Below are positions 24,467-32,094 of a DNA stretch of 64,000 nucleotides, one piece after another. The stretch is from Lyngbya sp. CCAP 1446/10 (GTDB lineage: Bacteria; Cyanobacteriota; Cyanobacteriia; Cyanobacteriales; Microcoleaceae). The position numbers were made by a program, and so were the translations under genes. Numbering within the stretch: the stretch's first letter is position 1; each line of letters begins with the position of its first letter. The stretch lies in assembly GCF_026130175.1 (NCBI RefSeq), contig NZ_JAIGNI010000008.1, forward strand, positions 1-64,000. Reading direction: 5' to 3'. Below the pieces are notes generated by a model that was not told the DNA's origin, searched no databases, and saw only the letters and a list, made by a program, of their open reading frames with translations.

Positions 24467-25933
24467 TCAATCATCCAGCAGCAAGTCGCGGAGGAAATAA
24501 AAGCGATCGCGCCCTAAATTCTCGCCTTTAATTCGCCCTGCATAACCTGTCAGCGGAGAAGAAAGTTCTACTAACATTTCGTGCAACTCTTCGCGGGACA
24601 ACTTCTGCGGTGGGTTAGACATTGAATACGCGCCGCTAAGAACATCCACACTTGCTCGTTCAGAACCAGTATTTTCGTGATATTTTTTCAGAATATCCAG
24701 AACGTGCGATCGCAATTTAAGATTTTCCCAAACTCCGTCAATGTAAAGATTAACTTTAACATCAGCATCTTCGCCAAACGGTTCTTGCTCTAAACACGGT
24801 TTTAAGTCTAATAAATTAACTGAACCGGGGTGTTTAGCTTTCAATTCAACAAGTTTTTGCAATGTTTCAGGGCGAATGACATTCATGTGGTTTCCGATAG
24901 CAGTTTGTTTAGCGTGTCTATTTAACTGACCAGCGGCCATAATTATCTTAATACAGCAGTTGTATTGTTCCTGAAGATGCTTATGTCCTAACTTGATCAG
25001 TTGCGCTGGCGTTCCATCAGCTACGGTTTCACTTTTGGTAGCTTTGCATTCTCCCACTACCTGATAGGGAGTTTCACAGTAGAAATCTAAGCCGCCAGCG
25101 CCCCCGGTTGATTCAGGATCGAGACTGGCTTCTGGTTTCCTGTTAGAATTTCCGAAACCTAGCTTGATAAAACCTTTGCGGACTAATTTTTCAAAGCCAT
25201 AACCGTCGCTAGAGTTGCCGATTTGTGAAATTGTTTGAATCCAACCTAAATCTGGATCTGGTTGTGTTATTGGTGATTTTTCCGACCAACCGAGAAACAT
25301 TTTGATTTCTGCGTCTAGTTGTTTAGCTTTTGGGTTGGTGGTGGATAAATGCACTAATGCACTTTGCAACTCTTCCAATTCTGGATGTTCGGGAGGCTCT
25401 AGTTTTTCCAGTTGTTGGCGGCGTTTGGCAAAGATAGACTCGCTCAACACTGGCGTTGAATCAGTCACAGTTAGGGATTTTGGCAAAGATACAAAATTAC
25501 CGCTGGGATGCACTGGCATTTCCAGCGGCTGAGGTAGCAGATAAACGCGAAGATAAGCTAGAAAAATATAAGGTTTTTCTAGGAGGGTTTGCTGTAATGC
25601 CTCTGTTGTCCAGACTGTTAACTGCGACAAAGCCTCTAATGATTCTGGATCATTGAGCATTTGGCACAATTCACATCTAGCCCAAGCTTTAATGAAAACT
25701 TTCTCAGAATTTAACTGAGCAAGTGCCTTTTGAGCAACAGGCAAAAAACTTGAGCGATAATGTTGTTCGTGAGGCAGCAAATTAATCGAGATATCGGCTG
25801 GATAGAGGGCAAATGTTCGCCCCGGATTCAGAAACATCCGAGGCATAGCTGCAATCATTCGTCCTTGGATTAAAGCTTCAATATCTGGATTTGGTAAAGC
25901 CAGAGCTGTTTGAAGCAAAATTGATTTGCTCAT
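24467..25933 (-). CDS. Putative PD-(D/E)XK nuclease of a three-gene ATPase cassette
   Basis: A 488-residue protein not assigned to a named family. Residues 1-225 are unrecognised. Residues 230-345 resemble a restriction-endonuclease-like core: a leading helix with Glu248 (GYGFEKLVRKGFIKLGF), then Asp283 in GGAGGLDFYC and Glu295-x-Lys297 in QVVGECKAT, the classical D...ExK arrangement. A conserved-looking C-terminal part follows (VNLYIDGVWENLKLRSHVLDILKKY). Its ATG lies only two bases after the ATPase stop, so the two are probably translationally coupled. It is the last gene of the operon and probably the effector, but this is inference. Confidence 0.72.
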   Translation of the reverse strand: MSKSILLQTALALPNPDIEALIQGRMIAAMPRMFLNPGRTFALYPADISINLLPHEQHYRSSFLPVAQKALAQLNSEKVFIKAWARCELCQMLNDPESLEALSQLTVWTTEALQQTLLEKPYIFLAYLRVYLLPQPLEMPVHPSGNFVSLPKSLTVTDSTPVLSESIFAKRRQQLEKLEPPEHPELEELQSALVHLSTTNPKAKQLDAEIKMFLGWSEKSPITQPDPDLGWIQTISQIGNSSDGYGFEKLVRKGFIKLGFGNSNRKPEASLDPESTGGAGGLDFYCETPYQVVGECKATKSETVADGTPAQLIKLGHKHLQEQYNCCIKIIMAAGQLNRHAKQTAIGNHMNVIRPETLQKLVELKAKHPGSVNLLDLKPCLEQEPFGEDADVKVNLYIDGVWENLKLRSHVLDILKKYHENTGSERASVDVLSGAYSMSNPPQKLSREELHEMLVELSSPLTGYAGRIKGENLGRDRFYFLRDLLLDD

Positions 25934-25935
25934 GG

Positions 25936-27915
25936 TTAACTAAATAGGTCACTTAGATCCCCATCATCTGTATCATCATTGGTGGGAGGGTTGAAAATGT
26001 CTTCTAGAAGTAGGTTTTCATCTTCATCGTCAACCACAGGCATTTCACCGGAGGGATCGCTCAAAATTTCCCGCAATAAAAGATTCTCAAAAGTGAGCTG
26101 CTTCTGAGATATGAAATCAAATATCTGGTCTTCTGTTAAATTGTAATCTCGGCATTTTTGACAAACAGCACGGAGAGCCAGTAGTGGCTTTATTTGCTCT
26201 TCAATCAAATACACTACCTCACCGCCTTTTTCAACTGACACGAGTTCTTCTAGAAGCTTGTAGGCTTTAGAGTTTTTCTTGATTTTATCTATTTTTGATT
26301 GGGAACGGACTAGACAACCGCGCGTCAAATCAAATTTTTGATAATCAGTTAAGCGCTTTAATCCAGCAACTAATTCAGCTTGAGGAGATTGGATGACTGC
26401 AACCCCTATCTTGATAGCTCTGCCATTTTCGGTGCCAATTATCTTGAATTTAATCCAATTCGCATTTGGTATTTTGGGTTTGATTTCTGCGGTAATATCA
26501 TCAATTGTTACATTATCTACCGTCTGACCTTTCAACGTTTCAAAGCCAAAGTAAATAGCCTTAGCAATTGTGGAATCATTTTCGATATCCTCTCCGATAT
26601 CTGCCTCAAGTTCCTTATTTAAAGCAAACTCAAACCGCTCAATAGGATTTTCTGGAAGTTCAGGCATTGGAGGCATGAAAACTTGAAAATTCTCGGCACA
26701 CCAGTTCAAAGCTTCGCGTACCGTTGGCTTACCTCTGCCATGTTCTCTCAGTTGACTTTCCTCAAATGGATAGAGCGGATGAGGGGGGTTTAAATTCCTG
26801 ACTTGATAAAAATCTTGCAACCATAGTCCGACTAAATCAACTAAAGAATCGCCATTCAAGTATTTTAAATCGATTGGTTTTTTCTGCGTGTATGTTGAAA
26901 CTCGATCGGGTATACCGCCAGTCATTACATTCACTATGTTTATCCACGTATAGGGCATCATCACTGTGATAATAACCAAACCTTGACCGAGATCGGAGTG
27001 TTCGAGAGTATCGTACAAACGCTTAACTAGATCGGCAATTACCTGCGGTGTTGTCAAGCCATCATCTCTACAACTTGTATTTAGATCTATTTCATCAAAA
27101 CAAATGATTACAGGACTGTAGTAACTCACCAAATTTAAAATTTGCTGGACATTATTCAGAGATTCGGCTTCTCTGTCCTGATTAGTTTTGCCGGAATTAG
27201 CCGGCAATCCTAGTTCCTCAGCTTTAGATTTATCTAACTCTTCACCAGATAACCATTTGATAGCAAAAGGTGTTTCAGATTCTGATAATGTCCACAAAAC
27301 AGCTCGAACAATATAAGGGTCTACATTTGATTTTGTTTTGAGAACTTGCTTAGTTAGGGTGTTGATGAAATTTCTATTTTTATTAGCCCAACTAGCGCAT
27401 ACTCTGTCAAATCGATCGAGAAGTTCTTGAGCAGAAAGATTTGGTGTAGCAGAATTGATAGCTTTAAAACCTTCGTTGGCCATTGCTGCCGCTATTTCCT
27501 GCCATTGCATGACATCTTGGCTTCCTGTGTGGCTCAAACTGTTAGCTAAAGTTTGCTGAAATTGGTATTTTATCAAGTTTAAATCGGTGTAATTATTAAC
27601 ACTGGCATAAACGAACAGAGCACCTCCATTACTTTCTAGTCTGTGGCGAGTTCGGCTCAAAATGTGGCTTTTTCCCATTCCCTGTTGAGCGGTTAATACC
27701 AGTGAAGTAACTTTTTCTTGGCTGGATTGAGTAGTCTGTACTTTTTCAACAGCCTGAAAAATGGCATCGGAAGCGTGAGCATTTAAAGTTGGAATATCGG
27801 GGAAACCTTTTCCCCAAATATCTTGTTCTTTGACAATTCCAGCTTTGGTAAATGGATTGTGATTTTGGATGGCAGCATTGAGGGCTTCTATCGGAGAAAC
27901 TGATATATTGTTCAT
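25936..27915 (-). CDS. AAA-type P-loop ATPase of a three-gene cassette
   Basis: A 659-residue ATPase. The Walker A is TAQQGMGKSH (Gly79, Gly81-Lys82-Ser83), with Ala in place of the usual first Gly. The Walker B is PVIICFDEIDL (Asp274-Glu275). The segment GLVIITVMMPYTW fits a sensor-1 strand, and IPDRVSTYTQKKPIDLKYLNG...LVGLWLQDFY fits a helical lid. The C-terminus is very acidic (DDEDENLLLED..DDTDDGDLSDLFS), as in proteins that mimic DNA or tether a partner. The organisation recalls ORC/KAP-like ATPases in defence or DNA-management modules, but I cannot name the family. It lies 47 bases downstream of the winged-helix gene and two bases upstream of the nuclease-like gene. Confidence 0.8.
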   Translation of the reverse strand: MNNISVSPIEALNAAIQNHNPFTKAGIVKEQDIWGKGFPDIPTLNAHASDAIFQAVEKVQTTQSSQEKVTSLVLTAQQGMGKSHILSRTRHRLESNGGALFVYASVNNYTDLNLIKYQFQQTLANSLSHTGSQDVMQWQEIAAAMANEGFKAINSATPNLSAQELLDRFDRVCASWANKNRNFINTLTKQVLKTKSNVDPYIVRAVLWTLSESETPFAIKWLSGEELDKSKAEELGLPANSGKTNQDREAESLNNVQQILNLVSYYSPVIICFDEIDLNTSCRDDGLTTPQVIADLVKRLYDTLEHSDLGQGLVIITVMMPYTWINIVNVMTGGIPDRVSTYTQKKPIDLKYLNGDSLVDLVGLWLQDFYQVRNLNPPHPLYPFEESQLREHGRGKPTVREALNWCAENFQVFMPPMPELPENPIERFEFALNKELEADIGEDIENDSTIAKAIYFGFETLKGQTVDNVTIDDITAEIKPKIPNANWIKFKIIGTENGRAIKIGVAVIQSPQAELVAGLKRLTDYQKFDLTRGCLVRSQSKIDKIKKNSKAYKLLEELVSVEKGGEVVYLIEEQIKPLLALRAVCQKCRDYNLTEDQIFDFISQKQLTFENLLLREILSDPSGEMPVVDDEDENLLLEDIFNPPTNDDTDDGDLSDLFS

Positions 27916-27962
27916 AGCGATCGGGTGTGAGGTAACGAACTACAAAAAGATTCAGGGCTATT

Positions 27963-28685
27963 TTATGAATTCAAACGCTTGGCGTAATAACGGAATGCAC
28001 CACCAGGAATAGTGATAGAATCTTCACGTTTATCTGAGGTGATGTCTTGTGTTTCTCCAGCCATTAGCTGAAAAATGTCATTAGCCTGCATTTCCAACAG
28101 CCACTCGCTGAACTGAGAACGGCTGACTTTTTCGCCAATTTCTCGCCGCATCCGATAAATCGGCACCAAATCGTCTAAGTTATAATCCCGGTTCAAGCTG
28201 TCATACACATCGATCGCCAAAGCCTTAAAATTGTCATAGGATGCGATCGCACTTTCCGCCTTCTTCCCCGCCCCCACAGCAACACCCGCCGCACCATCCT
28301 GATGCCGAATCCACTTCAGCAAAGCATTTCCCAGCCGAGTACCGATTTGAGAACCATCAAACTCAAACAGAGAATCGCGACTTTGCAGGCCATCCGCCAA
28401 AACCTCCTTCCCCTTCGCGCTCAACTCCAACCGCGTCACCCGATTTACCAGCGAATACTCAATCGCCCCAGCTTCCTGCAACTCCGCGAGCACTCCCAGA
28501 TATTTCTGACTCGTCTCATTAGTGCGAACAATCCGCTTAGTCAAATCGCCCTTTTTAACCGGAATTTGACCTGCGCCCAAATCCCACAAATTCAGTAACA
28601 CTCGAACTTTCGCCTTCGCATCCCAAACCGCTTGCTCTTGGGGTGTCAAAGTTTTAGGCACCGCAATTTCATTGTTCTCAGACAT
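27963..28685 (-). CDS. Winged-helix DNA-binding-like protein, first gene of the cassette
   Basis: About 240 residues. The N-terminal half (20-105) reads as a winged helix: VRVLLNLWDLGAG, a recognition-helix-like NETSQKYLGVLAELQEAGAIEYS, then a wing in VTRLELSAKGKEVL. The C-terminal half (about 150-240) looks like a second helix-turn-helix (VPIYRMRREIGEKVSRSQFSEWLLEMQANDIFQL). This may be a regulator of the operon or a DNA-recognition subunit of the complex. AGAAGG touches the first ATG at 28691, so the second ATG at 28685, seven bases away from it, is the more likely start. The name is unknown; confidence is for it being a real gene. Confidence 0.78.
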   Translation of the reverse strand: MSENNEIAVPKTLTPQEQAVWDAKAKVRVLLNLWDLGAGQIPVKKGDLTKRIVRTNETSQKYLGVLAELQEAGAIEYSLVNRVTRLELSAKGKEVLADGLQSRDSLFEFDGSQIGTRLGNALLKWIRHQDGAAGVAVGAGKKAESAIASYDNFKALAIDVYDSLNRDYNLDDLVPIYRMRREIGEKVSRSQFSEWLLEMQANDIFQLMAGETQDITSDKREDSITIPGGAFRYYAKRLNS

Positions 28686-29108
28686 ATTCATACCTTCTAA
28701 TATCTATTGTTAGTATCAAATTTTACCAGAAATTTGGCTGAAAAACATCTAAACTTCTCAGCAAAATAACGCACGAGGCTGCGCACAACATACAGCAAAT
28801 TTCATTTAAAAATCATTGGATTGACTAAAATTTGCTTATTTGATACAATGACTGGTTGGGCGATCGATCGCACTTCAAAATATCTACAGTCAATAAGATC
28901 GATCGTACATTTCAATCTAAACAATCCCCATCAAAGCCAGCTACAGCTTAGCAACCTCAACAAATATAGCGCTCCCAACCGCAGTCAACCACCAGCAAAT
29001 CAGCTTAACTGCGACTTTAGTTCAATGCCCGATTCCGCCTTTAGAAAGACGCATTCAACCTACACATCTCGTTACATTGCAATCAAAGCATTGAAGAGAA
29101 TTTTACCC
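28686..29108. other. Divergent intergenic region between the cassette and the rhodanese-like gene
   Basis: About 420 bases with no repeat family member. A frame open from 28821 runs into the rhodanese-like gene, but it has no conserved features before the ATG at 29109. The promoter of the three-gene cassette should lie near 28700-28760; no confident -35/-10 pair was identified. Confidence 0.4.
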
Positions 29109-31502: not shown

Positions 31503-31929
31503 CTCAGAGACTTTAGTCCTGAGAGGGAAACTCAGAGACTTTAGTCCTGAGAGGGAAGCGGCTCGGCGATTTCAATCGCGTTGAATCTTTCCATTACCGC
31601 CTTGGGATTGGTTGGTTCGGTGTGCTTTTGTACTACACTTTCAACGGGACAGTTACCGTTTCAAATCTCCCAATCCTGTACGCATAATGTTTGGCATTTC
31701 TGCCTCTCCCTTGCGGGGGTGATGTTAGCTTCGCCAATGTTATAAGGGCTTGTTGGGCTTGTGACACTGTTCCAGGGACTTTAGAACTGTTTAATCACAA
31801 GCGACAGAGCAGAAAACTAGCTTCGCATTCGCTGGTGTCGTGACCTAAATAACGTAGTCAGTTAAGACTTAGGCTGGTCAGAATAGCTTGTTAGATTTCT
31901 CTTTCAAGCTCAGTGGCTTTAGCCCTGAG
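31503..31929 (-). mobile_element. Putative IS200/IS605-like remnant bounded by covarying hairpins
   Basis: Three hairpins of one design occur here: CTCAG A GAC TTTA GTC CTGAG at 31503-31523 and again at 31531-31551, and CTCAG T GGC TTTA GCC CTGAG at 31909-31929. The G-C/A-T swap in the inner stem is compensated, so structure is conserved. Such subterminal hairpins without terminal inverted repeats are typical of IS200/IS605 (TnpB-type) elements and their short palindrome-associated derivatives. On the minus strand the interior resembles the decayed 3' end of a tnpB, with several stops and no intact frame. This is moderate inference only. Confidence 0.4.
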
Positions 31930-32094
31930 TTCCTGACAATTCGGGGTAATTGGTAATTAGTAATCGGTAATCTATGATTATATCAAATTTGGTCGATCGC
32001 ACACAACCTCACTTATGGACACAGCACTGCCTTTCCGAAAGTGTCAACAATCGCCTGGAAATCTTTGTATATCTCGTTCGCAGCCAAGGCCAGA

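What the first reader, a model, noticed from the sequence alone, without database searches (positions are those of the whole stretch)
24467..28691. Unnamed three-gene operon: winged-helix protein, AAA ATPase, PD-(D/E)XK nuclease-like protein
Three minus-strand genes lie with gaps of 47 and 2 bases. The ATPase has Walker A at Gly79-Ser83 and Walker B at Asp274-Glu275. The third protein has an Asp283...Glu295-x-Lys297 nuclease signature, and the first has two helix-turn-helix-like regions. ATPase plus nuclease plus DNA-binding subunit in one operon is the common plan of anti-phage or anti-plasmid modules, but I cannot match it to BREX, Dnd, Septu, Gabija, Wadjet, Lamassu or another named type. 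A Uma2 gene lies next to it on the other strand.
Basis: partly seen in the sequence, partly recalled or inferred. Interest (0 to 1): 0.85.

Follow-up and report, generated by a model that had tools for sequence, protein, structure and literature searches.

The report
Swappable three-gene DNA-cutting module in cyanobacteria
A cyanobacterium carries a three-gene module that looks built to sense and cut DNA, of a kind already predicted to defend against foreign DNA, and its parts appear to have been swapped piece by piece between species, as expected of an arms race.

Summary
In detail: three minus-strand genes with gaps of 47 and 2 bases. Protein 1 is winged-helix-like (weak evidence). Protein 2 is an AAA+ ATPase whose model resembles ORC/Cdc6. 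Protein 3 joins DUF1802, probably an ASCH-like base-reading domain, to a PD-(D/E)XK nuclease; D283, E295 and K297 are kept in 60 of 60 aligned trios. In cyanobacterial samples 53 genomes have both nuclease and wHTH: 51 on one contig with an ATPase-sized gap, 2 on different contigs. The arrangement is not new: Rakesh, Aravind and Krishnan (2024) predicted it in one sentence; my searches met no experiment on it. New here is its evolution: among 20 trios of the window's genus the wHTH N-terminus follows the genus, whereas wHTH C-terminus, ATPase, ASCH part, nuclease and tail do not (AU p 0.02 to 9e-43). In two genus genomes a PLD-SNF2 helicase gene stands in place of ATPase and nuclease. I read it as a restriction-type defence locus with exchangeable cassettes. 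Defence is inferred, not shown; searches found no good phage or plasmid copy, and no clear defence island.

The parts
27963..28691 (-). wHTH-like protein, 242 aa, first gene of the operon; residues 60-210 match the wHTH protein of the exonuclease-FtsK sister operons
   Evidence: hhalign of one pair of alignments, 140 columns, E 2.9e-10; weak winged-helix hits in 2 of 13 members
28287..28628 (-). wHTH N-terminal part (residues 22-135): stays with the genus, and is kept when the rest is replaced
   Evidence: (one side of a branch, support 100)
25936..27915 (-). AAA+ ATPase, 659 aa, ORC/Cdc6-like model; GMGKS 79-83, DE 274-275; region about 447-586 might be the inactive REase-like insert described for such ATPases
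   Evidence: the insert is a reading of secondary-structure order only
24467..25933 (-). Nuclease subunit, 488 aa: DUF1802 (ASCH/PUA-like model) + PD-(D/E)XK + conserved C-terminal tail
25412..25906 (-). DUF1802 domain, residues 10-174, candidate ASCH-like modified-base reader
   Evidence: Pfam PF08819 E 1.4e-33; whole-model Foldseek rows to ASCH proteins, prob 1.00, E from 0.0042; the tool shows no aligned range, so the placing on this domain is inferred from length and topology
24818..25249 (-). PD-(D/E)XK region, residues 229-372; E248, D283, E295, K297
25327..28224 (-). Stretch without blastn match to genome G004, while the two sides match at 90 and 84% DNA identity (wHTH C-terminus + ATPase + DUF1802 differ as one block)
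24551..28274 (-). Stretch without blastn match to genome G007, which holds a PLD-SNF2 helicase gene there; similarity resumes on both sides (80 and 69-77%)
28692..28760 (-). Leader just upstream of the wHTH gene, alike by eye in most genus copies including G007 and G025 (likely shared expression signals); borders approximate
   Evidence: alignment of 26 rows; L153 (G177) does not align

Best explanation
A chromosomal restriction-type (counter-invader) module with exchangeable parts. Inferred working: the wHTH protein and the ORC/Cdc6-like ATPase assemble on DNA; the ASCH-like DUF1802 domain inspects bases (probably for a modification, or for its absence); when the ATPase complex licenses it, the fused PD-(D/E)XK domain cuts the invading DNA. 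Shown here by computation: operon, motif conservation, co-occurrence, predicted folds of moderate quality, homology of ATPase and wHTH protein to those of sister operons with an exonuclease-FtsK protein, and segment-wise exchange with a fixed wHTH N-terminus. Inferred: DNA as substrate, base reading, order of events, and that the target is phage or plasmid DNA.
For: Unit: 53 sampled genomes have both nuclease and wHTH matches; in 51 they share a contig with a gap of 1831-2661 bases, in 2 they lie on different contigs (from the tables); G419 had no row but shows the trio. Folds: nuclease-subunit model to ASCH proteins, among them TRIP4 ASCH with DNA (prob 0.66-0.80), and to the nuclease N.BspD6I, and more weakly Can2 and MspJI; ATPase model to ORC/Cdc6, then TnsC, BrxC and RdrA. 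Catalytic residues 60/60. Sister operons: ATPase profiles match over 485 columns, E 1.5e-24; wHTH E 2.9e-10; their third proteins (4 scanned) hold 3'-5' exonuclease, PDDEXK_1 or kinase, and FtsK domains; in the 2 scanned against PADLOC the FtsK part matches SspH of an antiphage system, best E 2.5e-66. Exchange: changes of the genus label and AU p are ATPase 5, 9e-43; PD-(D/E)XK 4, 2e-14; tail 4, 0.022; wHTH-C 3, 0.0027; DUF1802 2, 5e-8; wHTH-N 1, no test needed. Block replacement between matching sides. Patchy: near-full-length nuclease in 54 of 386 sampled cyanobacteria. Published prediction of the same set.
Against: No activity data. The models are of middling quality (mean pLDDT 67 and 74; pTM 0.46 and 0.52), no Foldseek match reached E 0.001 and most have large rmsd. 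Nuclease: no plasmid match; ATPase: no phage match, one weak plasmid match; none of the three in viral contigs, by a pattern search. Neighbours of 32 trio loci outside the genus show few defence-family matches (no control). In the genus the locus is nearly fixed (trio in 20 of 29 genomes, and in G001 with a stop in the ATPase), as a housekeeping role would also give. The flanks are not all stable: rhodanese is 84-94% identical in its 19 full-length matches, but NUDIX 66-96% and Uma2 60-97%, and no one-clade test was run on a flanking gene. Winged-helix identity is weak.
Confidence: 0.6

Rival explanations
1. A cellular DNA repair, recombination or chromosome-maintenance complex: an ORC-like loader with a nuclease acting on the cell's own DNA.
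For: ORC/Cdc6-like ATPase model; much the same chromosomal place in most genus genomes and, by eye, recurring neighbours in several Nostocaceae; no good phage or plasmid copy found.
Against: Patchy presence (54 of 386), exchange of single domains, an unrelated PLD-SNF2 gene in its place in 2 of 29 genus genomes and in one genome of another genus, broken copies and scars.
Confidence: 0.12
2. An abortive-infection device: the nuclease attacks the cell's own DNA once a phage signal is sensed, so the infected cell dies.
For: The ATPase model also matches a plant resistosome and RdrA; SspFGH, whose SspH shares the FtsK part of the sister operon, damages host DNA when unrestrained (PMC8092258, passages).
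Against: A fused ASCH-like reader fits selective cutting better (inference); no toxin or membrane-effector domain in the Pfam matches of the trio.
Confidence: 0.13
3. A barrier to plasmids, conjugation or natural transformation rather than to phages.
For: [quoted passage not shown] section 22; passage of section 26).
Against: Nothing here distinguishes it from phage defence.
Confidence: 0.1
4. A selfish gene set (restriction-modification-like addiction) kept by post-segregational killing.
For: Exchange and presence/absence pattern.
Against: I recognised no modification enzyme as a constant fourth gene (by eye, not searched genome-wide); scars show that it can be lost.
Confidence: 0.05

Closest known systems
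Orc/Cdc6 ATPase + ASCH-REase + DndG-like triple-wHTH operons (predicted; Rakesh, Aravind & Krishnan 2024, PMC10853773; section 22 read whole, other parts as passages)
   Same: Same three components in one operon; predicted counter-invader role
   Different: One sentence there, no name; the main text has no word beginning with 'cyanobacteri' and a single word beginning with 'DUF', which is DUF4338; no PLD; exchange at one site is not in the section read; supplements not seen
HerA/FtsK capture operons with Orc/Cdc6 ATPase, wHTH and 3'-5' exonuclease-FtsK protein (same paper)
   Same: ATPase and wHTH proteins of the cyanobacterial sister operons are homologous to those of the window
   Different: Third protein is exonuclease-(PDDEXK or kinase)-FtsK instead of ASCH-nuclease; no translocase in this window's operon
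SspFGH (PMC8092258, passages seen)
   Same: Three-gene module with a Walker A protein; SspH's FtsK part matches the sister operon's third protein
   Different: No PADLOC model matches the three window proteins (SspH models are in that library, SspF and SspG models were not checked for)
BREX BrxC
   Same: ORC/Cdc6-clade ATPase; BrxC among the structural rows
   Different: No BREX model matches the trio
Modification-dependent restriction enzymes (MspJI; EVE-HNH, PMC7897488, abstract start seen in a listing)
   Same: PUA-superfamily reader fused to a nuclease
   Different: Here with two partner proteins, one an ATPase; reader only predicted

Membership tests
Predicted Orc/Cdc6 - ASCH-REase - triple-wHTH operons (PMC10853773) | Orc/Cdc6-family AAA+ ATPase | tested here: met
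   AF2 model; the first five Foldseek rows are ORC or Cdc6, prob 1.00, E 0.0016-0.0029; Walker A K82 60/60; model of moderate quality, large rmsd
Predicted Orc/Cdc6 - ASCH-REase - triple-wHTH operons (PMC10853773) | REase fused to ASCH | tested here: met
   fold-level evidence, best E 0.0042, aligned range not shown by the tool
Predicted Orc/Cdc6 - ASCH-REase - triple-wHTH operons (PMC10853773) | DndG-like triple-wHTH protein in the operon | tested here: inconclusive
   Protein present in the unit; winged-helix hits weak, no DndG or SspB chain found by profile, number of wHTH units not modelled
Predicted Orc/Cdc6 - ASCH-REase - triple-wHTH operons (PMC10853773) | Mobile gene neighbourhood | tested here: inconclusive
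   Parts exchanged, but with shared flanks in most genus genomes and no good copy in the phage, plasmid or viral collections searched
HerA/FtsK capture systems | HerA/FtsK translocase in the operon | tested here: not met
   No FtsK/HerA match in the window trio; present in the sister operons
BREX | BREX proteins by PADLOC model | tested here: not met
   No PADLOC match for the trio at E up to 1
Dnd/Ssp, Septu, Gabija, Wadjet, Lamassu and other types held by PADLOC-DB 2.0.0 | PADLOC model match | tested here: not met
   0 families at E up to 1 for all three proteins
Modification-dependent (Type IV) restriction | Cuts only modified DNA | not testable with these tools
   needs biochemistry

The most novel reading that the evidence does not exclude
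The locus is a fixed chromosomal 'socket': a conserved wHTH N-terminus and leader keep the place and control, while effectors are plugged in by recombination: ATPase + ASCH-nuclease of several types, or a PLD-SNF2 helicase; elsewhere wHTH N-termini sit beside another, unknown gene set (L157-L159). The recognition block (wHTH C-terminus, ATPase, ASCH part) and the cutting domain can be exchanged apart from each other, so what is recognised and how it is cut evolve separately.
Probability: 0.35. Interest if true: 0.7.

Novelty: new member of a known kind. Interest (0 to 1): 0.52.

Why it matters
It gives the predicted Orc/Cdc6-ASCH-nuclease systems a natural series of about 20 alleles in one genus, most at one site, that differ segment by segment. 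That makes it testable which segment decides what is attacked, whether DUF1802 reads modified bases, and how far a wHTH anchor or an ORC-like ATPase can be re-paired with other effectors.

Tried and rejected
Known defence type by PADLOC: none. NCBIfam hits to the ATPase (Sll1717 family 1.4e-7, DS41_1 8.6e-6 and others) lie far below their cut-offs and were not followed. PHROGs: nothing useful. Solved structures by sequence or profile: nothing useful for the trio. Phage and plasmid carriage: nuclease in plasmids, ATPase in plasmids and phages, all three alignments in viral contigs; one weak plasmid match of the ATPase (23%, E 3e-4). A prophage portal protein with a stretch like the wHTH C-terminus (L164) is the one phage link met. 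Defence island: 119 proteins, up to two of at least 100 aa on each side of 32 hand-chosen loci outside the genus, against PADLOC at E 1e-8: PDC-S03 in 3 members, and kinase (PD-T4-6, mad6), Cas12f/Cas12u-like, RT, Csx1, Cas1 and PDC-S09 in single members, among the 25 of 92 families listed; no control set, so I claim neither enrichment nor its absence. Uma2 as a part: rejected, it stays when the module is replaced in G007 and G025. wHTH C-terminus as strictly specific to the ATPase: weakened, since G177 has a full-length wHTH (62%, residues 1-242) with PLD-SNF2. Papers: 'DUF1802' gave one paper, unrelated by title; two further searches listed nothing that by title or abstract start describes the module; a search for MADS papers gave nothing on MADS. 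'No experiment met' rests on these and; no search was made for an experiment as such.

Rows dropped and choices: the tree set was offered 20 genus loci and 40 others, chosen by hand from those fetched; L046 (G001) fell out because its ATPase is interrupted, and the window was added, giving 60 rows, 20 of the genus. Of the 20 genus rows, 14 show a rhodanese or NUDIX gene on one side and Uma2 on the other (the window and 13 loci), 5 only one side (G006, G015, G019, G024, G026), and G022 neither; so 'one site' is shown for most, not all. Trees were 'quick' without the mixture model, with long branches flagged. I had seen the identities and two trees before the one-clade tests; the group (the genus) was given by the genome labels, the segment borders were mine. 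In the tree of the whole wHTH protein three outside rows (L078, L144, L162) fall in with G004 and G012, so the genus is not one clade there. The count used 54 nuclease rows (near-full-length) and 54 wHTH rows picked by me; fragments and stand-alone DUF1802 rows were left out.
Full report
What is there. Three minus-strand genes at 28691-27963, 27915-25936 and 25933-24467 code for 242, 659 and 488 residues, with gaps of 47 and 2 bases. The nearest named relatives are records titled Microcoleus, Tychonema and Oscillatoriales cyanobacterium. I call the group of 29 genomes that the genome search labels with the window's genus (the window's own included) 'the genus' below.

The proteins. The third one has Pfam DUF1802 at residues 10-174 (E 1.4e-33) and a sub-threshold Mrr_cat match at 242-361. 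Its AlphaFold model (16 rows, mean pLDDT 67, pTM 0.46) has, at 244-367, helix, two strands, helix, strand, helix, strand, helix: PD-(D/E)XK order except that the first of the three leading strands is not clearly formed. Foldseek with the whole model gives ASCH proteins (5y7d E 0.0042, ZmASCH 5y6b E 0.0055, both prob 1.00; 2dp9 E 0.035 with TM 0.69 by target length; TRIP4 ASCH with DNA, prob 0.66-0.80) and the nickase N.BspD6I (E 0.0044); MspJI (E 0.12, prob 0.20) and Can2 (E 0.34, prob 0.75) are weak. The tool does not show which residues were aligned; that the ASCH rows lie on DUF1802 and the nuclease rows on the Mrr part is inferred from lengths and topology. No match reached E 0.001. The ATPase model (13 rows, pLDDT 74, pTM 0.52) has ORC/Cdc6 entries as its first five rows, with TnsC, BrxC and RdrA further down, none at E 0.001. 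The order of elements at 447-586 might fit the inactive REase insert that PMC10853773 describes for such ATPases; this is a reading of secondary structure, not a test. The first protein has no Pfam match; 2 of 13 alignment members match a winged-helix family (best E 0.00045).

Conservation. E248, D283, E295 and K297 are kept in 60 of 60 trios; K82 and D274 in 60 of 60; E275 in 51 (Q in 8, D in 1). In the phylum samples 54 genomes have a near-full-length nuclease match among 386 searched, and 54 a wHTH match of similar extent among 377; own genome included. 53 have both; in 51 they share a contig with a gap of 1831-2661 bases, in 2 they are on different contigs. The nuclease-only case, G419, had no row but shows the full trio (L154); the wHTH-only case, G177, has a PLD-SNF2 gene instead. 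The scan of genome contigs for close relatives returned 15 loci, all with cyanobacterial titles; other phyla were not searched with the sensitive tool.

One place, many versions. In the genus, 20 of 29 genomes have the trio as open genes in one piece, and G001 has it with a stop in the ATPase. G007 and G025 have the replacement below; G009, G010, G016, G017 and G027 show cut or partial copies; G023 shows none. Of the 20 trios, 14 have a rhodanese or NUDIX gene beside the wHTH gene and Uma2 beside the nuclease gene, 5 show one side only and G022 neither. Identity to the window by segment (wHTH-N, wHTH-C, ATPase, DUF1802, PD-(D/E)XK, tail) runs, for example, 90, 37, 28, 31, 90, 61 in G004; 66, 73, 46, 70, 66, 85 in G018; 89, 71, 46, 63, 94, 65 in G021. 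The window's ATPase is up to 70% identical to ATPases outside the genus, but only 28-47% to those of 12 of the other 19 genus copies. On trees of 60 rows the genus is one side of a branch for wHTH-N (support 100), and one clade is rejected for wHTH-C (p 0.0027), ATPase (9e-43), DUF1802 (5e-8), PD-(D/E)XK (2e-14) and tail (0.022). For comparison, the flanking rhodanese is 84-94% identical in its 19 full-length matches outside the window, but NUDIX is 66-96% and Uma2 60-97%, so the flanks are not uniformly stable, and I ran no one-clade test on them. The trees are of the quick kind, and I had seen identities and two trees before testing.

Breakpoints. Against G004 the DNA matches at 90% up to 28224 and again at 84% from 25327: wHTH C-terminus, ATPase and DUF1802 lie in the unmatched block. 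Against G007 the match stops at 28274 (80%) and resumes at 24551 (69-77%). There, and in G025, stands a 1083-1089 aa protein; that of G007 has SNF2 and helicase C-terminal domains and a sub-threshold PLD match. The last 27-28 residues of the nuclease are still readable near its end in both. G177, of another genus of the family, has a full-length wHTH with the same type of protein beside a rhodanese gene. In the phylum sample that type occurs in 2 of 377 genomes at E 1e-40; the other, G097, showed no wHTH beside it.

Relatives. Distant ATPase matches lead to a sister operon: a protein of about 275 aa, an ATPase of about 660 aa and a third of 826-1121 aa. By eye this order stands in 8 of the 13 places looked at (L090-L092, L094, L096, L098, L099, L102); L093, L095, L097, L100 and L101 differ. 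The four third proteins scanned (L090, L096, L098, L102) have 3'-5' exonuclease and FtsK domains with PDDEXK_1, or in L098 a protein kinase, between. Profile comparison joins the ATPases over 485 columns (E 1.5e-24) and the wHTH proteins over 140 (E 2.9e-10); these E-values are for one pair, not for a database. The FtsK part matches SspH (E 2.5e-66) and mad8 (8.8e-30) (L090). SspFGH is an antiphage system that damages DNA lacking phosphorothioate (PMC8092258, passages).

In print. [quoted passage not shown] This matches the window trio and its sister closely; I file the window as a probable member, with the triple-wHTH feature inconclusive. The main text has no word beginning with 'cyanobacteri'; its supplements were not seen. 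PMC12839542 (outline and passages) repeats the wider theme. PMC7641849 (passages) says that EVE domains of the PUA/ASCH superfamily bind modified bases and that some ASCH domains are predicted to.

How it most likely works. The wHTH protein and ATPase assemble on DNA, the ASCH-like domain checks bases, and the fused nuclease cuts DNA judged foreign. Only the anatomy, the conservation and the exchange are computed results; the rest is inference from family knowledge. That wHTH C-terminus, ATPase and DUF1802 differ together in G004 and G012, while the nuclease domain stays 90 and 69% identical, hints that the first three touch each other and that recognition and cutting evolve apart.

Against it. 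No good phage or plasmid copy was found, no clear defence island (no control), and in the genus the locus is nearly fixed. The models are of moderate quality. A cellular role is not excluded.

Noticed in passing
window 31719-31937 (-): HEARO RNA (Rfam RF02033, 152.9 bits, E 3.2e-32), an HNH-endonuclease-associated RNA, about 3 kb from the trio.
   Followed up: no
L164 5283-9083 (-) (G347): A 1266-aa Mu-like portal protein (Portal_Mu E 7.1e-116) beside a terminase holds, around residues 744-834, a stretch 38% identical to residues 149-235 of the wHTH protein; a phage copy of the domain or a common interaction domain.
   Followed up: partly
L157, L158, L159 (G175, G076, G286): A wHTH N-terminus of 101-102 aa is followed on the same strand by a 433-aa gene in all three and, between, a 267-aa gene in L157 and L158 (335-aa frame in L159); the two L157 proteins have no convincing Pfam match: a possible further effector set.
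   Followed up: partly
L098 9508-12873 (G040): In one sister operon a protein kinase domain stands where three others scanned have PDDEXK_1, between the 3'-5' exonuclease and the FtsK part.
   Followed up: no
L071, L078, L079: A second full ATPase gene lies on the far side of the wHTH gene.
   Followed up: no
L165 6223-7881 (G325): Decayed copy in a genome of family f25: a wHTH N-terminal piece and a nuclease tail remain, with a fragment matching the malate dehydrogenase C-terminal domain between.
   Followed up: partly
60 ATPases: Walker B is D-Q in 8 and D-D in 1 of 60, which may impair hydrolysis; not checked which operons they sit in.
   Followed up: no
L084 7568-8233 and L076 6742-8404 (G050): A full-length wHTH gene without trio partners beside it, and a broken nuclease gene about 450 kb away on the same contig.
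   Followed up: no
L046, L052, L054, L056, L062: Uma2 genes beside the site come in pairs in several genomes.
   Followed up: no
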